Shown one piece after another: positions 17,688-29,265 of a stretch of 64,000 nucleotides of DNA. The DNA is from Chitinophagales bacterium. GTDB taxonomy: Bacteria; Bacteroidota; Bacteroidia; Chitinophagales; Saprospiraceae. The notes under the pieces were generated by a model. It was not told where the DNA came from and made no database searches. It saw only the letters and a list, made by a program, of their open reading frames with translations. The DNA is taken from positions 135,949 through 199,948 of the forward strand of contig JAAFJN010000002.1 of the NCBI GenBank assembly GCA_013298845.1. Direction: 5' to 3'. A program made the position numbers and the translations under genes. How positions within the stretch are numbered: the stretch's first letter is position 1; every line of letters begins with the position of its first letter.

Positions 17688-19964
17688 ATGCGGAAAATTT
17701 TCTACATTTCAATCCTCTTCTTAATAATAAATAGCACTTCAGGAAGTGCTCAAAACAAGACCGTTGACTCATTGCTCACCGTTTTAAAGACGGTGAAAGC
17801 AGATACCACTAAAGTTGATATTCTGAATGAGCTTGCCAAGTTTGATGGCTATCAATCGGGCAATTTTGAAAAATGTTTGCAATATACACAACAGGCCAAA
17901 ACGATTGCGGAGCAAACAGACCCACCCTATAAAAAAGGTATTGCATCTTCTATCAACATAATTGGAAATATTTACTACACACAATCCAATTACTCCCAAG
18001 CATTGAATTACTATACGGCAGCATTGAAAATACAGGAAGAAATCGAAAACAAGAGGGGTGTCGCAGTTTCTTACATGAATATTGGAAATATATATTCTGT
18101 ACAAGGTAAATACCCGGATGCTCTTAAAAACTATTTAATTGCTTTAAAAATAGCCGAGGAAATTGGCGACAAACAAGTTGCTGCAAATTGCCACAATAAT
18201 GTAGGAACTATCTATATATCACAAGGTAATTACCCTGAAGCCCTGAATAGTTTTTTTATGACTTTGACAATGCAAGATAAAATAAAAGATAAATATGTAG
18301 TTTCCAATGCTTACAACAACATAGGCTCCGTTTATTCCGATCAGGGTGACCACCTTAATGGATTAAAAAATTATTCAAATGCCTTAAAAATACGGGAAGA
18401 AATCGGAAATAAGCCAGGAATCGCTCGTTCTTATACAAACATCGGAATAATTTATTATAAACTGGGTAACTATCAAGAAGCATTGAAAAACCATTTTGCT
18501 GCTTTAAAAATATCCGAAGAAATCGGCGATAAACGGCAAATCGCTCGTGTTTATCACAGCATTGGGATTGTATATCAGGAGTTAGGCAATTACCTTGATG
18601 CACTTAAAAATCATTTAAGCGCTTTGAAAATACGAGAAGAAATCGGAGATAAACAAAGTATCGCCACCTCCTACATTAGCCTTGGGTCAACTTATTTAAA
18701 ACTACAAAATATCCCGGAAGCATTATTCTATGGAACACAAGGGCTGATGACCGCCAAAGCAATGGGCGGTTTACCACAAATAAAAGATGCTTACGAAATT
18801 CTTACTTCCATAGATACCGCAAGAAATGATTTTAAAAGCGCTCATGAAAATTACAAACTATATATTGTCTACAAAGACAGTCTTGCTAATGAAGAAACGT
18901 CCAAAAAAATACTGCGCCAGCAAATGCAGTTTGACTTCGATAAAAAAGAAAACCAATTAAAGTATGAAAAACAACTGAGTGAAGAGCAACTATTGCGCAG
19001 CAAACAAGAACTTGGATTGAGACAAAAGGAATTAGAACTCAGTAATAAAGAAAAAGACCTCAAGCAATTGGCATATCTGAAAGAAAAAGCAGAACGGCAG
19101 GAGAAAGAAAAGCAGTTGTCATTGGCAGAAAAAGATAAACAGTTACAAACTTCGAAGATTGAAGTCATGAGCAAAGAAAATGCGCTTCAAACCGCTCAAT
19201 TAGACATCCACAGGCAAGAAATTGCGACAAAAAATGCGCAACGTAACTTATTTATCGGAGGCACGGTATTGATGTTACTTTTAGCAGGTTCTATTTTTGT
19301 AGGTTTTAAGAGAACTTCAAAAGAAAAAAAACGCAGCGATGAACTGCTATTGAATATTTTACCCGCAGAAGTGGCGGAAGAACTTAAAACGAAAGGAGCA
19401 GCGGCGGCCAAACAAATGGATGAAGTAACAGTGTTATTTACGGACTTCAAAGCCTTCACTGATCTATCAGAAAAATTTACTCCAACAGAATTGGTAGCGG
19501 AAATTAATTATTGTTTCTCCGCCTTCGACCACATCATGCAAAAGCACGGTGTAGAAAAAATAAAAACCATTGGCGATGCTTATATGGCCGCCGGAGGTTT
19601 GCCCATTCCCAATCAAACACACGCCGAAGATGTCGTAAGGGCGGCTTTAGATATTCAACAATTCATGTTCCAATATCAATCGGAAAGACAAGCAGCCGGC
19701 AACCTCTTTTTCGAAGTCAGAATCGGCATTCACACTGGTCCGGTAGTGGCCGGAATCGTAGGGATAAAAAAATTTGCTTACGATATTTGGGGAGATACCG
19801 TAAATACCGCCTCAAGAATGGAATCATCGGGCGAAGTTGGTAAAATCAATATTTCCGAAACGACTTATACTTTAGTAAAAGATCGCTACCCTTGCGTCCA
19901 CCGCGGAAAGATTTCAGCGAAAGGCAAAGGGGAGATTAATATGTACTTTGTAGAAGTGCTATAA
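17688..19964 (+). CDS. TPR-repeat transmembrane adenylate cyclase (class III)
   Basis: The 758-residue protein has a signal peptide (1-21), seven ~40-residue tetratricopeptide repeats (about 85-370), a long charged coiled coil (about 400-520), one membrane helix (NLFIGGTVLMLLLAGSIFVGF) and a C-terminal class III cyclase domain. The cyclase shows both metal-binding Asp residues (LFTDF, TIGDAYM), Lys in IKTIGD and Asp in YDIWGDT, which specify ATP over GTP, and the transition-state Asn/Arg of TVNTASRM. TPRs should face the periplasm and the cyclase the cytosol, so it likely couples an envelope signal to cAMP. The gene is visibly more AT-rich than its neighbours, with TPRs repeated at DNA level. 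The Crp/Fnr regulator 4.5 kb on is a possible cAMP partner, but nothing ties them directly. Confidence 0.92.
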   Translation: MRKIFYISILFLIINSTSGSAQNKTVDSLLTVLKTVKADTTKVDILNELAKFDGYQSGNFEKCLQYTQQAKTIAEQTDPPYKKGIASSINIIGNIYYTQSNYSQALNYYTAALKIQEEIENKRGVAVSYMNIGNIYSVQGKYPDALKNYLIALKIAEEIGDKQVAANCHNNVGTIYISQGNYPEALNSFFMTLTMQDKIKDKYVVSNAYNNIGSVYSDQGDHLNGLKNYSNALKIREEIGNKPGIARSYTNIGIIYYKLGNYQEALKNHFAALKISEEIGDKRQIARVYHSIGIVYQELGNYLDALKNHLSALKIREEIGDKQSIATSYISLGSTYLKLQNIPEALFYGTQGLMTAKAMGGLPQIKDAYEILTSIDTARNDFKSAHENYKLYIVYKDSLANEETSKKILRQQMQFDFDKKENQLKYEKQLSEEQLLRSKQELGLRQKELELSNKEKDLKQLAYLKEKAERQEKEKQLSLAEKDKQLQTSKIEVMSKENALQTAQLDIHRQEIATKNAQRNLFIGGTVLMLLLAGSIFVGFKRTSKEKKRSDELLLNILPAEVAEELKTKGAAAAKQMDEVTVLFTDFKAFTDLSEKFTPTELVAEINYCFSAFDHIMQKHGVEKIKTIGDAYMAAGGLPIPNQTHAEDVVRAALDIQQFMFQYQSERQAAGNLFFEVRIGIHTGPVVAGIVGIKKFAYDIWGDTVNTASRMESSGEVGKINISETTYTLVKDRYPCVHRGKISAKGKGEINMYFVEVL

Positions 19965-23229: not shown

Positions 23230-23259
23230 TTGTGTTTAAATGAAGACATATTACCTTTG
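23230..23259 (+). promoter_or_regulatory. Bacteroidota promoter placing the Rpn start at the transcript end
   Basis: TTG at 23230-23232 fits the -33 box and TACCTTTG at 23252-23259 is a perfect -7 element. The Rpn start codon at 23264 is only five bases from the element, so the mRNA would have no leader or almost none. Confidence 0.7.
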
Positions 23260-23263
23260 CGCC

Positions 23264-24118
23264 ATGCCGAACGACTACGATAAAATTTTTAAGGAAAACT
23301 TTGAAGAATTGATCCCCGACCTGCTTCGCCTTGTGCTGAAATGGGAAATTCCGAAATTGGAAGAACTGAAGGACAAACAACAAGTCACTCTGGAACGCGA
23401 AATGGATGATTTGAAAAAAGTGGTGCACGACGACCCGTCGCTGGACTATGGTTTGCATTGGGAAATTCAAACCAACGACGAGGATATGCGTTCGCGCTTG
23501 TTTCTGTATTACGCCATGTTCTACCACAAACACCGTTTACCGCTCAAGCAAATTGTCATTTATATTGGCAACGAACCGGCCAGTTTAATTGACCGGGATG
23601 TACTTGAATTGGAAAATATTCGACTACAATTCTCGGTGGTAAACTTGCGAACAATTCCAAAAGACGTATTTTTGCAATCGGATAGACCCGAAAGTGTGAT
23701 TTTAGCCATTCTTTCGGATTTTGGAACCGATCGACCAGAAACAGTGGTTCGGCAAATTTTGGATAATTTGTTAAAACTTATTGGTCGGGTAGATCGTTTA
23801 AAAAAATATCAAAGACAGTTACACGTGCTTTCGCGTTTGCGAAAGTTATCCACTATCACAGAAAAAGCCATACATACTATGCCAATTCACTACGACATTG
23901 AAACGGATGAACTTTACCTTGAGGGAATGGAAAAAGGTATTGACATCGGGAGGGAAAAAGGTATCGAAAAAGGTATTCTCCAAAAATCCGAAGAAACGGT
24001 CATCATCTTGCTGAAAAAACGGCAATTCACTGTAACCGAAATCGCCGAAATAGTTAACGTTACCGAAGAATTTGTCCTTCAAACCGCCACTAAATTGGGG
24101 CTAAACGTTATTCGTTAG
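23264..24118 (+). CDS. Rpn-family PD-(D/E)XK nuclease (recombination-promoting nuclease/transposase-like)
   Basis: The 284-residue protein matches the Rpn/YhgA-like group: DYDKIFKENFEELIPDLLRL at the start, then Asp61 and HWEIQ (Glu67, Gln69) as the degenerate PD-(D/E)XK core, FLYYAMFYHKHRLPLKQIVIYIG, and a C-terminal helical tail with Gly/Lys repeats (about 220-240) and an HTH-like segment TEIAEIVNV. E. coli Rpn proteins are DNA endonucleases linked to recombination and phage restriction. Start 23264 is chosen because an in-frame ATG at 23240 lies within the promoter. An internal ATG at 23879 would give a 79-residue C-terminal product. A separate copy of that tail follows 54 bases on. Confidence 0.85.
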   Translation: MPNDYDKIFKENFEELIPDLLRLVLKWEIPKLEELKDKQQVTLEREMDDLKKVVHDDPSLDYGLHWEIQTNDEDMRSRLFLYYAMFYHKHRLPLKQIVIYIGNEPASLIDRDVLELENIRLQFSVVNLRTIPKDVFLQSDRPESVILAILSDFGTDRPETVVRQILDNLLKLIGRVDRLKKYQRQLHVLSRLRKLSTITEKAIHTMPIHYDIETDELYLEGMEKGIDIGREKGIEKGILQKSEETVIILLKKRQFTVTEIAEIVNVTEEFVLQTATKLGLNVIR

Positions 24119-24172: not shown

Positions 24173-24427
24173 ATGCCAATCCACTACGACATTGAAACGG
24201 ATGAACTCTACCTTGAGGGAATGGAAAAAGGTATCGAAAAAGGAGCCAAAATTGCTGAGGAAATTATTGCCAATTTTGGTATCGAAAAAGCCATATTAGC
24301 CAAAGTTGTCATTAGACTCCTGAGAAAGCAAAAGTTTACCGTAACCGAAATCGCCGAAATAGTTAACGTTACCGAAGAATTTGTACGCTATCTCGCCGAA
24401 AAGTTAGGACTGAAGGTTATTCACTAA
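24173..24427 (+). CDS. Free-standing copy of the Rpn C-terminal region (possible antitoxin-like or remnant)
   Basis: The 84-residue product is a duplicate of residues 206-284 of the preceding Rpn protein. The first 20 residues are identical (from MPIHYDIETD) and the end is near identical (FTVTEIAEIVNVTEEFV), while the middle has diverged. It begins exactly at the Met corresponding to the internal ATG of the Rpn gene and has an intact frame to its stop. In E. coli, rpn genes are reported to make small C-terminal antitoxins from internal starts (RpnS), so this could be an unlinked version. The alternative is the leftover of a tandem duplication. No own promoter of TAnnTTTG type was seen in the 54-base gap. 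Confidence 0.7.
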   Translation: MPIHYDIETDELYLEGMEKGIEKGAKIAEEIIANFGIEKAILAKVVIRLLRKQKFTVTEIAEIVNVTEEFVRYLAEKLGLKVIH

Positions 24428-24491: not shown

Positions 24492-25133
24492 ATGAGCACC
24501 ACCACATTTCAAGTTTATCACTCCCTTTTTTCCGGCTTAGAATCCGGTTTAATTGCCGAACTGGAACAAAAAGGCCGATTGGTTACCGCCCCGGCCGAAA
24601 GTATTTTATTACAAGCGGGCCAAAACATCCGAAATACGATGCTCGTGCTTGAAGGTGTGATTAAACTATACCGACAAGATGAGGACGGCAGCGAGTTTTT
24701 TATATATTACCTGCATCCCGGCGATGCGTGTGCGCTGTCCATGATCTGCGACCGAAGTTTTAAAACCAGTACCATTACCGCCAAAGCCGCTACCGACGTG
24801 AAATTGTTGGCCATTCCGATTGACGAAACCGAAAACTGGATGCGCCAATACCGTACCTGGTACCATTTTGTGGTAGAAACCTACCGCAAACGCTACGAAG
24901 AACTACTCCAAACCATTGATCATATCGCCTTCAAAAACCTCGATGAAAGGCTGGAATTTTACTTGCGTCGCCACCGCGACACGCTCAAAACCAACGTACT
25001 TACCCTCAACAATACCGAAATCGCGCAAGACCTCAACTCTTCCCGCGAAGTAGTGTCCCGATTGTTGAAAAAACTCTCCGAACAAGGCAAAGTCCGATTG
25101 TTAAAAACAGGCATCGAAATTATCCGGTTGTGA
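24492..25133 (+). CDS. Crp/Fnr-family transcription regulator with a Cys pair
   Basis: The 213-residue protein has an N-terminal cyclic-nucleotide-binding fold (about 10-125, with LVLEGVIKLYRQDEDG and YYLHPGDACALSMIC) and a C-terminal winged helix of HTH_Crp type (about 145-213, with TEIAQDLNSSREVVSRLLKKL). The canonical cAMP-site Arg of Crp is not evident. Its only two cysteines, Cys80 and Cys86, sit in the beta-barrel domain five residues apart. The gene lies directly before a CRP-like box and a persulfide/sulfite operon, so thiol-based sensing of sulfide or persulfide is a reasonable inference. A cAMP-binding or purely structural role remains possible. Confidence 0.88.
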   Translation: MSTTTFQVYHSLFSGLESGLIAELEQKGRLVTAPAESILLQAGQNIRNTMLVLEGVIKLYRQDEDGSEFFIYYLHPGDACALSMICDRSFKTSTITAKAATDVKLLAIPIDETENWMRQYRTWYHFVVETYRKRYEELLQTIDHIAFKNLDERLEFYLRRHRDTLKTNVLTLNNTEIAQDLNSSREVVSRLLKKLSEQGKVRLLKTGIEIIRL

Positions 25134-25146
25134 TTTTTTGCGCCAC

Positions 25147-25162
25147 TGTGACAAATATCACG
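25147..25162 (+). promoter_or_regulatory. CRP-like operator TGTGA-N6-TCACG
   Basis: The 16-base site differs from the classical TGTGA-N6-TCACA box at one base. It is 14 bases after the regulator stop and its centre is about 30 bases before the -7 element of the sulfur operon, that is near -44 from the predicted transcript start, a class II activator position. Confidence 0.65.
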
Positions 25163-25184
25163 GACATTGCCTTCGCTCAACCCG

Positions 25185-25192
25185 CATCTTTG
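25185..25192 (+). promoter_or_regulatory. Bacteroidota -7 element CATCTTTG of the sulfur operon
   Basis: One mismatch to TAnnTTTG. It stands between the CRP-like operator and the tauE-like gene, with no good TTG at -33, which would fit activator dependence. Confidence 0.6.
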
Positions 25193-25194
25193 CA

Positions 25195-25228
25195 GCGTAT
25201 TACAGTACTTCGATGATGTGTAATACGC
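25195..25228 (+). promoter_or_regulatory. Perfect 10-bp inverted repeat in the sulfur-operon leader
   Basis: GCGTATTACA (25195-25204) and TGTAATACGC (25219-25228) are exact reverse complements separated by 14 bases, right at the predicted transcript start. It may be a repressor operator or a 5' mRNA hairpin. Confidence 0.6.
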
Positions 25229-25252: not shown

Positions 25253-26059
25253 ATGGTCATTGTGGGTTATTTGGCGTCGGCATTGATCGGCGTTTCTTTG
25301 GGATTAATTGGTGGCGGGGGCAGTATCCTCACGGTACCCGTACTGGTTTATTTATTCGACGTTGAACCGGTGATGGCTACCGCCTACTCCTTGTTTATTG
25401 TGGGCGCAACCAGTTTGGTGGGCACTTGGCCAAAATACAACGACGGGCAAGTCAACCTGAAAACTGCGCTTATTTTTGGCATTCCATCCATCCTAGCGGT
25501 GTACGCCACCCGCGCATGGCTGGTCCCGATGATTCCCGATCCAGTCACGACCATTGGGCACCTGGTCATCACCAAAGCCATGCTGCTCATGGGATTATTC
25601 GCGGTTTTGATGGTATTTGCGTCCTTTTCCATGATTCGCAACCCAACCCAACCCGGCGAAAAAGACCCCAACCAAGGAGAACAACGCTTCAACTACCCGA
25701 TGATTTTACTGGAAGGAACCGTTGTGGGTATCCTGACGGGTTTGGTAGGGGCCGGTGGCGGTTTTTTGATTATTCCGGCGTTGGTACTTTTTTCTAAATT
25801 ACCGATGAAACAAGCCGTAGGCACGTCGTTGTTGATCATTGCCGCCAAATCATTGTTTGGTTTTACGGGCGATCTTGGCCAATACCAACTCAACTGGATC
25901 CTGCTGGGGAGCGTTACGACATTGGCCATTGCCGGTATTTTTATTGGCAACCGCCTGAGTAAAAACATCAACGGTAACGCCCTCAAACGCGCATTCGGAT
26001 GGTTTGTACTCGTCATGGGCTTGTATATTTTGGCCAAAGAATTTTATTTCACGGCCTGA
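25253..26059 (+). CDS. TauE/SafE-family sulfite/organosulfonate exporter
   Basis: The 268-residue protein has about eight membrane helices in two related halves, each opening with a Gly-rich signature: GVSLGLIGGGGSIL and GILTGLVGAGGGFLIIPAL. Family members export sulfite or organosulfonates. As first gene of an operon with a persulfide dioxygenase, its likely job is to remove sulfite formed by persulfide oxidation. ATG 25253 is preferred to an in-frame TTG three codons upstream. Confidence 0.88.
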   Translation: MVIVGYLASALIGVSLGLIGGGGSILTVPVLVYLFDVEPVMATAYSLFIVGATSLVGTWPKYNDGQVNLKTALIFGIPSILAVYATRAWLVPMIPDPVTTIGHLVITKAMLLMGLFAVLMVFASFSMIRNPTQPGEKDPNQGEQRFNYPMILLEGTVVGILTGLVGAGGGFLIIPALVLFSKLPMKQAVGTSLLIIAAKSLFGFTGDLGQYQLNWILLGSVTTLAIAGIFIGNRLSKNINGNALKRAFGWFVLVMGLYILAKEFYFTA

Positions 26060-26129
26060 TCTTCACAAAACATTTTAGCCAGTTATTGTTTATAACATAC
26101 CACTTTTGAATAAAATTTAGATGCACAAT

Positions 26130-27548
26130 ATGAAAATCGAGCAGATTTATACCGGTTGTTTGGCGCAAGGCGCATATTATATCGAAAGCGACGGTGAAGC
26201 CGTGGTAATTGATCCGCTGCGCGAAGTAACCGCTTACCTCGAAAAAGCCGAAAAAGCAAATGCCACCATTAAATACGTATTTGAAACGCATTTTCACGCC
26301 GATTTTGTGAGTGGTCACCTCGACCTGAGCAAAAAAACCGGCGCTCCCATCGTGTATGGCCCAACCGCCAACCCGGGATTTGAGGCACATATTGCCCAAG
26401 ACGGCGAACTTTTTAAAGTGGGTAAAATCACCTTCAAAGTGCTGCACACACCCGGGCACACCATGGAAAGCACCTGCTATTTGTTGATGGACGAAAACGG
26501 CAAAGAAACCGCCCTGTTTTCGGGCGATACCCTCTTTATCGGCGACGTGGGTCGCCCCGATTTGGCCCAAAAAGCCGCCCACCTCACCCAGGAACAACTG
26601 GCCGAAACCTTGTTCGATTCTTTGCGCAACAAAGTAATGACACTCCCCGATGAGGTGATTGTTTACCCCGCACACGGAGCCGGATCGGCTTGCGGCAAAA
26701 ACATGTCCAAGGAAACATTCGACACCCTCGGGCACCAAAAAACCGCCAACTATGCCCTCCGCGCAGACATGACCAAAGCCGAATTTGTGCAGGAAGTAAC
26801 CGCCGGATTGTTGCCACCACCGGCCTATTTCCCCCTCAACGTGGCCATGAACAAAAACGGATACGACAGCATTGACGATGTGTTGCAACGCGGCACGCAG
26901 GCACTGTCGCCCCGGGCTTTTGAAACAGCAGCCAACGAAACCGATGCGCTGATTCTGGATACCCGCGACCCACAAACGTTCTCGGAAGGATTTGTGCCCA
27001 ATAGCATTAATATTGGTATCGACGGCAATTTTGCACCTTGGGTAGGCGCATTAATTCCCGACATTAAACAGCAAATTTTGCTCGTTACCGCGCCCGGTCG
27101 CGAAGAAGAAACCGTTACCCGCCTTGCTCGCGTCGGTTACGATTATTGCCTCGGGTTCCTCGAAGGTGGTTTTGATGCCTGGAAAAAAGCCGGTATGGAA
27201 ACCGACCAAATTGAACGGGTGAGTGCCGAACAAATGGCCGCCATCCTGTCACAACACCCCGATACGCCGTTTTTTGACGTGCGCAAAGGCAGCGAATATT
27301 TCAGCGAACACGTCGCCGAAGCCGAAAATGCCCCCCTGGATTCCATTAACGAATCCATGTTGAGCATTCCAAAAGATAAAACGGCCTATATCCACTGCGC
27401 GGGCGGTTACCGCTCCATGATTTTTGCCAGCATCCTGCGTGCGCGCGGGTACGACCGGATCATTGACGTGACCGGCGGTTTTAAATCCATCAAAGACAGC
27501 GGTAAATTCAACGTCACCGACTACGTTTGCCCTTCTACTATGCTTTAA
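26130..27548 (+). CDS. Persulfide dioxygenase-rhodanese fusion (CstB/ETHE1-like)
   Basis: The 472-residue protein has an N-terminal metallo-beta-lactamase domain of ETHE1 type (about 1-240) with THFHADFVSGH, HTPGHTMEST, FSGDTLFIGDVGRPDL and YPAHGAG. Two rhodanese domains follow. The first (about 265-360) lacks the catalytic Cys (VTAPGREEE), while the second has it in HCAGGYRS. This is the layout of CstB-type enzymes, which oxidise thiol persulfides to thiosulfate or sulfite. ATG 26130 matches the usual family start MKIEQIYTGC; another ATG lies three codons upstream. It is the second gene of the sulfur operon. Confidence 0.93.
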   Translation: MKIEQIYTGCLAQGAYYIESDGEAVVIDPLREVTAYLEKAEKANATIKYVFETHFHADFVSGHLDLSKKTGAPIVYGPTANPGFEAHIAQDGELFKVGKITFKVLHTPGHTMESTCYLLMDENGKETALFSGDTLFIGDVGRPDLAQKAAHLTQEQLAETLFDSLRNKVMTLPDEVIVYPAHGAGSACGKNMSKETFDTLGHQKTANYALRADMTKAEFVQEVTAGLLPPPAYFPLNVAMNKNGYDSIDDVLQRGTQALSPRAFETAANETDALILDTRDPQTFSEGFVPNSINIGIDGNFAPWVGALIPDIKQQILLVTAPGREEETVTRLARVGYDYCLGFLEGGFDAWKKAGMETDQIERVSAEQMAAILSQHPDTPFFDVRKGSEYFSEHVAEAENAPLDSINESMLSIPKDKTAYIHCAGGYRSMIFASILRARGYDRIIDVTGGFKSIKDSGKFNVTDYVCPSTML

Positions 27549-27797: not shown

Positions 27798-28160
27798 ATG
27801 ATAGAATTTATAAAACGTTTCTTTGGCATGGGCACCCAGGAAGAAATTGACCCGAATGGCCCACAGAATAAAACCCTCGGCGGAAAACAGTTCAAAGAAG
27901 AACTTGCCGCAACGGCAGACGCCATCTTACTGGACGTGCGGACACCGGCCGAATTTTCGTCCGGGACCATTCCCGGGGCGCTGAATATGGACATCATGAC
28001 TTTTAATTTTGCGCAAAAAGCCGAAAAACTCGACAAAACCAAAACTTATTTCGTATTTTGCCGAAGCGGCAACCGAAGTGGTCAGGCGTGCAAAATCATG
28101 CACAAAATGGGATTCGACGTGCGCAACCTAAGCGGAGGTATTGGTTCCTTTCCTCGTTAG
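27798..28160 (+). CDS. Single-domain rhodanese
   Basis: The 120-residue protein is one rhodanese domain with ILLDVRTPAEFSSGTIPGALN and the active-site loop CRSGNRSGQA, ending in LSGGIGSF. The Cys in FCRSG carries the persulfide during sulfur transfer. It has no signal peptide. It lies 22 bases before the YeeE-type genes and probably hands sulfane sulfur to or from the transporter or the dioxygenase. Confidence 0.92.
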   Translation: MIEFIKRFFGMGTQEEIDPNGPQNKTLGGKQFKEELAATADAILLDVRTPAEFSSGTIPGALNMDIMTFNFAQKAEKLDKTKTYFVFCRSGNRSGQACKIMHKMGFDVRNLSGGIGSFPR

Positions 28161-28182: not shown

Positions 28183-28743
28183 ATGAACGTACTCACTCAT
28201 CCCTGGCCCTGGTGGGCAGCGGGTGTACTCATCGGGCTGATTGTCCCTGCATTGTTACTTTTGGGTAATAAAAAGTTTGGTATATCTTCCAATCTGCGGC
28301 ACATTTGCGCGGCTTGTTTACCCGCAAAAATTTCGTTTTTTCAATACGACTGGAAAAAGGAAATCTGGAATTTCTTTTTTGTGGGTGGTATTTTCCTCGG
28401 GGCTATTATCGCTACCATTTGGCTCAAAAACCCCGATCCCATGCAAATTCACCCGGACCTGGCCCGCGATCTGGCGGCCAATGGCATTACGCACCTCGAT
28501 GGTTTGGTCCCTTCCGATTTATTCAGTTGGTCGAGTCTGTTCACGCTGCGCGGCTTTATTTTAATGGTCGTTGGCGGCTTTTTGGTGGGTTTTGGCACCC
28601 GTTACGCGGGCGGCTGCACCAGTGGACACGCCATTATGGGGTTGTCGAATTTGCAAATTCCGTCGCTGATTGCCACCATTTCGTTTATGGTGGGCGGCTT
28701 TTTGATGACACAACTCCTTTTACCCTTCATTTTATCTTTGTAA
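28183..28743 (+). CDS. YeeE/YedE-family sulfur transporter, first half
   Basis: The 186-residue membrane protein has about four helices and the conserved Cys motif RYAGGCTSGHAIMG. YeeE/YedE (TsuA-like) proteins move thiosulfate or sulfur species through the inner membrane using conserved Cys residues. In many bacteria one polypeptide carries both halves; here they are separate genes three bases apart. Confidence 0.88.
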   Translation: MNVLTHPWPWWAAGVLIGLIVPALLLLGNKKFGISSNLRHICAACLPAKISFFQYDWKKEIWNFFFVGGIFLGAIIATIWLKNPDPMQIHPDLARDLAANGITHLDGLVPSDLFSWSSLFTLRGFILMVVGGFLVGFGTRYAGGCTSGHAIMGLSNLQIPSLIATISFMVGGFLMTQLLLPFILSL

Positions 28744-28746
28744 AAA

Positions 28747-29265
28747 ATGGCCATGTCGAACAACACCCGTAAAATACAAACCCCCGAGCAGGATTTAGCC
28801 ATGCGCCGCCAAGATGCCATGTGCGTCAACGAATCCGACATTAGCCAACCGTGGTGGCATAACCTGAAATACGCCGTTGTGGGTATTTTTTTTGGCGTTA
28901 TTTTTATCAAAGCCGAAATCGTATCGTGGTTTCGCATCCAGGAAATGTTTCGCTTCGAGTCGTTCCACATGTACGGCGTTATTGGCACGGCCGTGGTCGT
29001 GGGTGCAGCGTCGGTATTTCTCATTAAACGATTCAAAGTCAAGACTTTTGAAGGGGAAGCCATTCAATTTGAAGATAAAAAATTCAGCGTGGGTCAAATT
29101 TACGGCGGCCTGCTGTTTGGCTTGGGTTGGGCCATGACCGGCGCTTGTCCGGGGCCATTATTCGCCCAAATTGGCACAGGCGCCTTGGTGATTTTTGTCA
29201 CCCTGCTGAGTGCCATTGTGGGGACTTGGACGTATGGTTATGTACGCGAAAAACTGCCGCATTGA
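28747..29265 (+). CDS. YeeE/YedE-family sulfur transporter, second half
   Basis: The 172-residue membrane protein has about four helices and the second Cys motif GWAMTGACPGPLFAQIG, as in DUF6691/YeeE C-terminal halves. With the previous gene it should form a complete transporter. ATG at 28747 is three bases after the previous stop; a second ATG lies two codons in. It is the last gene of the sulfur cluster and is followed by a strong terminator. Confidence 0.87.
   Translation: MAMSNNTRKIQTPEQDLAMRRQDAMCVNESDISQPWWHNLKYAVVGIFFGVIFIKAEIVSWFRIQEMFRFESFHMYGVIGTAVVVGAASVFLIKRFKVKTFEGEAIQFEDKKFSVGQIYGGLLFGLGWAMTGACPGPLFAQIGTGALVIFVTLLSAIVGTWTYGYVREKLPH

What the first reader, a model, noticed from the sequence alone, without database searches (positions are those of the whole stretch)
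24492..25228. Crp/Fnr regulator with a sole Cys pair facing a CRP-type box and a persulfide operon
The regulator has only two cysteines (80 and 86), in the sensing domain. Fourteen bases after its gene is TGTGA-N6-TCACG, about 44 bases from the predicted start of the operon for sulfite export and persulfide oxidation. Known sulfide or persulfide sensors are of other families (ArsR-type, CsoR-type, FisR). This could be a Crp-family persulfide sensor that activates its neighbouring operon.
Basis: partly seen in the sequence, partly recalled or inferred. Interest (0 to 1): 0.75.

Follow-up and report, generated by a model that had tools for sequence, protein, structure and literature searches.

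The report
Cysteine-pair Crp regulator of persulfide operons
A gene-switch protein of the Crp family, with just two cysteines in its sensing part, sits beside and very probably turns on genes that burn off reactive sulfur; similar arrangements occur widely in Bacteroidota and reappear in distant bacteria, so it may be a new kind of sulfur sensor.

Summary
The 213-aa Crp-type regulator (24492-25133) has Cys only at 80 and 86; a TGTGA-N6-TCACG box (25147-25162) follows it, before a TauE / CstB-like / rhodanese / two-YeeE operon. The regulatory link is strong. After orthologous two-Cys regulators the box recurs (at least 9 of 10 matches in 32% of 114, against 0.4% of control tiles). It lies 33-34 bp before a -7-type TTTG in 61 of 83 loci, an activator-like place near -41, and varies with the recognition helix (E186 with TGTGA, V186 with TGTAA). 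The bipartite motif is enriched in genomes with the regulator, and marks a SoxB-like/CstB-like locus elsewhere in this genome. Cys80 is kept in 172 of 174 regulators, Cys86 in 138 (94 of 95 in the window's clade); 30 of 30 other Crp/Fnr paralogues lack both. In 8 of 8 Rhodobacterales plasmid loci opened, the pair are the only cysteines and an MBL-fold gene follows (Blh-like in the 3 scanned); 7 of 8 have GTGA-N5-TCAC. Persulfide as the signal is inference: single-Cys relatives also stand beside the operon, and PgRsp, which fits them by numbering, was reported to bind haem. Ten paper searches listed no Crp-family persulfide sensor.

The parts
24492..25133 (+). Crp/Fnr-type regulator, 213 aa (PF00027 + PF13545)
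   Evidence: model with mean pLDDT 91.5
24729..24731 (+). codon of Cys80, kept in 172 of 174 regulators counted
   Evidence: for the sequence, for the counts
24747..24749 (+). codon of Cys86, kept in 138 of 174 regulators and 94 of 95 of the window's own clade
25044..25061 (+). recognition-helix residues 185-190 (R-E-V-V-S-R); residue 186 varies together with base 4 of the box
25147..25162 (+). operator TGTGACAAATATCACG
25189..25192 (+). TTTG of the Bacteroidota-type -7 element, 34 bp after the box centre
25253..26059 (+). TauE/SafE-type sulfite exporter (PF01925)
26121..27548 (+). MBL-fold protein with two rhodanese domains, CstB-like persulfide dioxygenase/sulfurtransferase
   Evidence: PDB 3tp9, 3r2u
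27798..28160 (+). single-domain rhodanese
28183..28743 (+). YeeE/YedE half-transporter (PF04143)
28747..29265 (+). YeeE/YedE half-transporter (PF04143/DUF6691)

Best explanation
The protein is a local transcriptional activator of the Crp/Fnr superfamily. As a dimer it binds TGTGAY-N4-RTCAC, centred about 41 bp before the start of transcription. There it makes up for a missing -33 element and switches on genes that oxidise and move reactive sulfur: CstB-like persulfide dioxygenase, rhodaneses, TauE, YeeE pair, and elsewhere in the same genome a SoxB-like/CstB-like/porin cluster. Its beta-roll carries Cys80 and Cys86 where the phosphate-binding cassette of CRP would be. The most likely signal is sulfane sulfur (low-molecular-weight persulfide or polysulfide). 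It would persulfidate Cys80, and in the two-Cys class be captured as a Cys80-Cys86 disulfide or polysulfide bridge, which shifts the dimer to its DNA-binding state. Shown by sequence: operon linkage, box, promoter geometry, helix/box covariation, candidate regulon, conservation of the cysteines. Inferred: dimer binding, activation rather than repression, the signal and the cysteine chemistry.
For: Linkage: 87 of 114 two-Cys regulators have TauE, CstB-like or YeeE genes within 8 kb. Of 126 CstB-like places typed, 54 lie within 11 kb of a regulator, and 83 of the 95 genomes concerned have a close regulator. Box. Spacing: 61 of 83 boxes have TTTG at +33 or +34. Covariation of residue 186 with the box. 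Genome-wide: the bipartite motif has 149 sites against 29 for the reversed control in 133 genomes with a close regulator, and 48 against 24 in 231 with none; own genome 9 against 0. CstB-like operons not linked to the regulator carry it in 12 of 28 loci from genomes with a close regulator and 1 of 12 from the others. Candidate regulon: SoxB-like, SoxA/TsdA-like cytochrome, SQR, DsrC, DsrE2-like, CoA-disulfide reductase-like. Cysteines. Recurrence in Rhodobacterales.
Against: No experiment. Class B1 regulators lack Cys86, yet 9 of 30 stand near such genes, so a two-Cys bridge cannot be general. PgRsp, whose published Cys76/Met78/His85 numbering fits class B1, was reported to bind haem, with spectra unchanged by C76A (PMC6955866). 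Several regulon candidates have no obvious sulfur role (HMA protein, DUF983, MFS). 53% of two-Cys rows show no box of at least 8/10 in the 100 nt after the gene, and 27 of 114 have no TauE, CstB-like or YeeE gene within 8 kb. The residue block 81-90 of the model is poorly determined (pLDDT 68).
Confidence: 0.6

Rival explanations
1. Haem-based redox or gas sensor of the PgRsp/CooA type; the cysteines are haem ligands or bystanders and the operon responds to redox state.
For: PgRsp of Porphyromonas gingivalis binds haem and was modelled on 3DV8. 3DV8 is also the best PDB sequence match of the window protein and has the same C-x5-C. The PgRsp residues Cys76, Met78, His85 in 207 aa match class B1 members, for example L161.
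Against: In the two-Cys class no His is present in 30% or more of the 114 rows at positions 1-130. PgRsp spectra were reported unchanged by C76A, M78A or H85A. Sulfur genes are prominent among the neighbours and regulon candidates.
Confidence: 0.13
2. General thiol-disulfide switch that answers oxidants, electrophiles or NO, not persulfide in particular.
For: A Cys pair six residues apart might form a disulfide; peroxiredoxin and thioredoxin-like genes lie behind some boxes.
Against: Persulfide-oxidising genes stand beside the regulator in two distant groups with different enzymes, CstB-like and Blh-like.
Confidence: 0.14
3. The beta-roll binds a sulfur metabolite (sulfite, thiosulfate, CoA persulfide) non-covalently and the cysteines are structural.
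For: Crp-family domains usually bind small ligands; sulfite exporter and thiosulfate-transporter-type genes are neighbours; a single Cys suffices in class B1; Ser93 is also invariant in the 66-row alignment, so the pocket has other conserved residues.
Against: Of positions 70-99, Cys80 alone is identical in all 172 Cys80-bearing rows, which were themselves chosen by that residue; the 30 other paralogues fetched lack it.
Confidence: 0.08
4. The regulator acts as a repressor at this box, released by the signal (not exclusive of the sensing rivals).
For: Most well known sulfide sensors are repressors (recalled); binding near -41 can also block polymerase.
Against: Spacing of box and -7 element held in 61 of 83; TA of TAnnTTTG at that register in only 4 of 83, and no -33 TTG in the 55-site consensus, as expected for an activator-dependent promoter.
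Confidence: 0.15
5. Another Crp paralogue is the true ligand of the box and the neighbouring regulator does something else.
For: The 13 genomes searched have 1 to 9 PF13545 proteins each.
Against: Covariation of residue 186 of this regulator with the box; enrichment of the motif in genomes with the regulator; a like box next to Cys-pair regulators in Rhodobacterales.
Confidence: 0.06

Closest known systems
PgRsp of Porphyromonas gingivalis (PMC6955866; abstract, passages and section 3.1 read)
   Same: Crp/Fnr member of Bacteroidota outside the named families, modelled on 3DV8; published residue numbers fit the single-Cys class B1 of this group
   Different: fits the class with one Cys in the loop; reported as haem-binding redox regulator; no persulfide operon mentioned in what I read; membership inferred from residue numbers, its sequence was not fetched
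3DV8, Crp/Fnr regulator of Eubacterium rectale
   Same: best PDB sequence hit (E 3.6e-16), same C-x5-C at the same place
   Different: other phylum, no function known to me; 24% identity in the fold match
CstR (CsoR family) / cst operon of Staphylococcus aureus (recalled)
   Same: same job and nearly the same genes: TauE, rhodanese, CstB-type MBL-rhodanese (3r2u match; that 3r2u is CstB is recalled)
   Different: repressor of another fold; here a Crp-type probable activator
BigR/SqrR (ArsR family) and the blh operon (PMC5823870, start of abstract; the two-Cys mechanism is recalled)
   Same: two-Cys sensor controlling a sulfur dioxygenase
   Different: ArsR fold and repressor; in the Rhodobacterales plasmids opened, a Cys-pair Crp stands in front of an MBL-fold gene, Blh-like where scanned
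E. coli CRP and FNR
   Same: fold; R-E-x-x-x-R recognition helix and TGTGA half-sites like CRP (base contacts: PMC12531629, passages)
   Different: score far below the CRP equivalog cut-off (44 against 266 bits); two Cys, not the four of FNR
Acinetobacter baumannii Crp (PMC7315123, passages)
   Same: a Crp-type protein found persulfidated in sulfide-treated cells
   Different: CRP/Vfr-like, with the conserved Cys described as opposite the ligand pocket; the passages say the impact of persulfidation on its function is not known

Membership tests
Crp/Fnr superfamily | cNMP-binding beta-roll, dimerisation helix and Crp-type HTH | tested here: met
   PF00027, PF13545 and PF00325 over cut-off; model matches CRP-fold chains
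cAMP receptor protein (CRP) | equivalog model NF008732 score of at least 266 bits | tested here: not met
   44 bits
FNR ([4Fe-4S]) | four cysteine ligands | tested here: not met
   two Cys in all
CooA/PgRsp-type haem sensor | conserved His in the sensor domain as possible haem ligand | tested here: not met
   window has Ser at 89; no sensor-domain His in 30% or more of the 114 two-Cys rows
CooA/PgRsp-type haem sensor | haem binding | not testable with these tools
   needs protein
PgRsp subgroup (class B1) | C-x-M-x6-H loop, no second Cys | tested here: not met
   window has C-A-L-S-M-I-C; class B1 is for the most part apart on the tree (27 of 30 rows in another group)
persulfide sensor (functional class) | conserved reactive Cys pair in the sensor domain | tested here: inconclusive
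   conservation in the window's clade 94 of 95; reactivity not testable; class B1 has one Cys
persulfide sensor (functional class) | controls persulfide-oxidation genes | tested here: inconclusive
   linkage, box and candidate regulon by sequence; no expression data
persulfide sensor (functional class) | persulfide changes DNA binding | not testable with these tools
   needs protein
ArsR (BigR/SqrR), CsoR (CstR), FisR | their folds | tested here: not met
   only Crp-type domains found
CstB-like MBL-rhodanese (product of the operon) | MBL domain followed by two rhodanese domains | tested here: met
   PF00753 plus two PF00581 stretches; 3tp9 and 3r2u at E under 1e-60

The most novel reading that the evidence does not exclude
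A subfamily of Crp/Fnr activators that spans phyla, in which Cys80 (usually with Cys86), standing where CRP holds cAMP, senses sulfane sulfur and switches on persulfide oxidation. It is found in Bacteroidota and Rhodobacterales, with operator GTGA-N6-TCAC or GTGA-N5-TCAC respectively. It would be the first persulfide-sensing group of the Crp family that I know of, and an activator where most known ones are repressors.
Probability: 0.55. Interest if true: 0.8.

Novelty: new variant of a known kind. Interest (0 to 1): 0.72.

Why it matters
Many Bacteroidota carry CstB-like MBL-rhodanese genes (186 of 392 sampled genomes at E 1e-60), yet my ten paper searches listed no named regulator for them. 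A defined operator, promoter geometry and candidate sensor residue make the question directly testable. If right, it adds the Crp fold to the folds known to read sulfane sulfur and would show how an activator rather than a repressor can do it. It would also offer a new frame for PgRsp and for the relatives of the structure 3DV8.

Tried and rejected
cAMP-CRP and FNR membership were rejected. Haem ligation by a conserved His in the two-Cys class was rejected on sequence only. The leader hairpin at 25195-25226 as a conserved control element was rejected: z -1.9, and not seen in the close relatives printed. The strict TGTGAYNNNNRTCACR pattern alone is no richer in the own genome than its control by the tool's count (8 matches against 8); only box plus TTTG is (9 against 0). 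The first comparison, of 12 genomes with the regulator and 11 without, used genomes of which most had been picked after motifs were seen, so I repeated it on all 392; leaving those 12 and the own genome out, 120 genomes still give 96 against 23. The structure gives no usable Cys-Cys distance: the loop is uncertain and no coordinates were found in the Python box. Subscription papers and bioRxiv are mostly not in that library. Papers looked into: PMC6955866 (outline with abstract, passages, section 3.1), PMC7315123, PMC9774590, PMC8510549, PMC12531629 and PMC8014003 (passages), PMC9603854 (outline with abstract, passages); the rest were seen as search listings.

Results against the reading, or that weaken it: class B1; PgRsp; boxes missing in many loci; Cetobacterium L371 without the cysteines; Spirosoma L362, with the operon beside it but Gly at 86 and Cys at 87; Paracoccus aminophilus L368 without the box. 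In one search, E186 rows (141) gave 44 best hits to TGTGA, 6 to TGTTA and 0 to TGTAA; V186 rows (30) gave 4 TGTAA, 1 TGTTA and 0 TGTGA; related sequences were not down-weighted. In one search the 12 'without' loci include G062, which has a deep-class regulator; the single motif-bearing one is L243. At the laxer threshold of 7 the figures are 17 of 28 and 3 of 12. Of 221 loci with a regulator (220 fetched plus the window), 174 that differ in the last 120 residues were counted. L029 and L030 are unrelated Crp proteins and are the two without Cys80.

Full report
What is there. The regulator ORF 24492-25133 (213 aa) has a cNMP-binding domain and a Crp-type HTH and only two cysteines, 80 and 86, in GDACALSMIC. 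Thirteen bases separate its stop from TGTGACAAATATCACG (25147-25162), and 34 bp after the box centre lies TTTG (25189-25192), the core of the Bacteroidota -7 element (that element is recalled; spacing). Then follow TauE, an MBL protein with two rhodanese domains (PDB matches 3tp9 and 3r2u), a rhodanese and two PF04143 half-transporters. The box is the only exact TGTGA-N6-TCACG in 64 kb (0.10 expected); box plus TTTG is absent from 100 shuffles.

Relatives. I took hits from 40 related genomes (34 with a match), 80 named GTDB loci (the best 80 of 581), a phylum sample of 392 genomes (161 with a member at E 1e-20) and neighbourhoods. Of 221 loci, 174 with differing regulators were counted, the window included. 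Cys80 is present in 172 (the two others are unrelated Crp proteins), Cys86 in 138. By loop and score there are 114 two-Cys regulators (20 with a third Cys at 87), 30 single-Cys ones (class B1) and 28 deep ones, 24 of them with a third Cys at column 46. In a quick maximum-likelihood tree the window lies in a clade of 95, of which 94 keep both cysteines. The 30 other Crp/Fnr paralogues fetched (of 83 PF13545 matches in 13 genomes: own, same genus, same order) all lack both, with a gap of two residues in that loop.

Linkage. TauE, CstB-like or YeeE genes lie within 8 kb of 87 of 114 two-Cys, 9 of 30 class B1 and 6 of 28 deep regulators; some loci end at contig ends, and many two-Cys loci came in as best hits of the window's kind. 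In the neighbourhoods from the phylum sample (L111-L130, L161-L200), which I chose by genus or score before seeing the neighbours, the figures are 12 of 20 (two-Cys), 4 of 21 (B1) and 2 of 18 (deep). From the other side, 54 of 126 listed CstB-like places are within 11 kb of a regulator, and 83 of the 95 genomes concerned have a close regulator somewhere (one more, G062, has a deep one).

The box. Within 100 nt after the regulator gene, TGTGA-N6-TCACA at 9 or more of 10 occurs in 32% of 114 two-Cys loci, against 0.4% of shuffles and 0.4% of 12401 control tiles; at 8 or more, 47% against 5% and 3%. Class B1 has 7% and 23% (n 30), the deep class 11% and 18% (n 28). In four loci with divergent sulfur genes it lies upstream of the regulator (L040, L047, L110, and L072, which has one on each side). 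Of 83 boxes at 8 or more, 49 have TTTG at +33 and 12 at +34; no other offset exceeds 5. TA of the full TAnnTTTG is at that register in only 4 of 83, and the consensus of 55 sites shows no -33 TTG. This is how an activator-dependent class II promoter would look; activation is inference.

Covariation. Residue 186, the counterpart of CRP Glu181 (alignment position recalled; Arg180, Glu181 and Arg185 are listed as base contacts in PMC12531629, passages), is E in 141, V in 30, K in 2 and A in 1. Best boxes at 9 or more are TGTGA 44, TGTTA 6 and TGTAA 0 for E, and TGTGA 0, TGTAA 4 and TGTTA 1 for V. TGTAAC-N4-GTTAC boxes were seen with V186 in CC rows (L019, L170), deep rows (L144, L160) and, in the wider scan, the B1 row L180, so this is not one lineage. 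Few V boxes were found.

Regulon. In the own genome the bipartite motif occurs 9 times, the reversed control 0. Three of these are in one other locus (L221, G000:C3) with a SoxA/TsdA-type cytochrome, a SoxB-like protein (TIGR04486 at 248 bits, below its cut-off of 550), a second CstB-like protein and an OprD porin. Others precede an HMA protein, a DUF983 protein, a divergent pair that includes an MFS and another cNMP-domain protein, and a protein with no family over cut-off. In other genomes sites precede or lie near SQR, DsrC, DsrE2-like, CoA-disulfide reductase-like, peroxiredoxin and thioredoxin-like genes; the SQR gene is 2 kb behind its site. Over 392 genomes there are 149 sites against 29 control in 133 with a close regulator, 8 against 2 in 28 with a deep one, and 48 against 24 in 231 without. 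CstB-like operons not linked to the regulator carry box plus TTTG near a start in 12 of 28 loci from genomes with a close regulator and 1 of 12 from the others (threshold 8; 17 of 28 and 3 of 12 at threshold 7).

Outside Bacteroidota. A tblastn of PLSDB found 32 records; I opened 16. Eight of these are Rhodobacterales (two Thioclava, three Paracoccus, two Ruegeria, one Pseudosulfitobacter), of 20 such records found. In all eight the regulator's only cysteines are the pair at 80/86, and an MBL-fold gene follows in the same direction; DUF2892 is annotated in five, YeeE and DUF6691 in five, a TIGR01244-type gene in five, SulP in seven. The MBL proteins of the three that I scanned match the dioxygenase part of Blh at E 1.5e-109 or lower, though below the full-length cut-off. 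GTGA-N5-TCAC lies within 60 nt after the regulator in 7 of the 8 (7 of 11 proteobacterial loci tested), against 3 of 1520 control tiles. In the two Azospirillum loci it begins 100 and 92 bases before DUF2892. Thiothrix has GTGAC-TTT-GTTAC. Pontibacter and Spirosoma plasmids carry the Bacteroidota-type operon; the Spirosoma regulator has Cys80 and Cys87, not Cys86. Cetobacterium L371 lacks the cysteines.

Mechanism. The model (pLDDT 91.5) has the Crp fold; Cys80 comes just before a short helix, where the phosphate-binding cassette stands in CRP (recalled), and the block 81-90 is poorly determined (pLDDT 68). I infer that sulfane sulfur reacts with Cys80 and, where present, Cys86 captures it. 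The single-Cys class shows that the second Cys is not needed in every relative, or that this class senses something else. PgRsp, with Cys76, Met78 and His85 in 207 aa, fits class B1 by numbering (compare L161) and was reported to bind haem; its spectra were reported unchanged when Cys76 was replaced. I therefore give the whole explanation, persulfide sensing included, about 0.6, and the regulatory link itself well over 0.9.

Novelty. Ten searches of open papers (listed under Tried and rejected) gave no Crp-family persulfide sensor; PMC7315123 (passages) reports a persulfidated Crp whose functional consequence it calls unknown. The fold, the operon type and the idea of persulfide sensing are known; the combination, the defined operator and the recurrence across phyla are what is new.

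Noticed in passing
window 23240-24118 and 24173-24427: An Rpn-family nuclease/transposase-like ORF (TIGR01784, below its cut-off) is followed by a short ORF that repeats much of its C-terminal part, just upstream of the regulator.
   Followed up: no
window 25195-25226: Inverted repeat GCGTATTACA / TGTAATACGC in the predicted leader (-13.8 kcal/mol, z -1.9); not seen in the close relatives printed.
   Followed up: partly
window 17688-19964: By eye, a TPR protein with a class III nucleotide-cyclase-like C-terminal domain about 4.5 kb before the Crp-type regulator; no family search was run on it.
   Followed up: no
L049-L052, L054-L056, L058, L060, L062-L065 and 14 other rows listed: 27 of 174 regulators, most from Flavobacterium, carry an extra C-x-C near the end of the long helix before the DNA-binding domain.
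   Followed up: no
many of L183-L200; L357, L359, L363, L369: Deep members mostly have a third Cys at column 46 besides 80 and 86 (24 of 28); a metal or cluster site is possible.
   Followed up: no
L358, L360, L364-L367, L370: The operator spacer is 5 bases in Rhodobacterales and 6 in Bacteroidota, with the same GTGA/TCAC halves.
   Followed up: partly
L221 (G000:C3:1-13000): Second sulfur cluster of the same genome: SoxA/TsdA-type cytochrome, SoxB-like protein, fatty-acid-hydroxylase family protein, CstB-like protein and OprD porin, with three copies of the bipartite promoter.
   Followed up: yes
L111 (G000:C12:492046-492663): A paralogue of the regulator in the same genome has only the Cys at 80 and a V186 recognition helix (TARVVVSR), so it should prefer TGTAA; no TauE, CstB-like, rhodanese or YeeE hit in the 12.5 kb fetched.
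   Followed up: partly
L033: A contig binned as Thermoanaerobaculia (Acidobacteriota) carries a 71% identical regulator with TauE; mis-binning or transfer.
   Followed up: no
L371 (Cetobacterium somerae plasmid): A distant Crp/Fnr protein without the loop cysteines stands before asrABC (anaerobic sulfite reductase), with one gene between.
   Followed up: no
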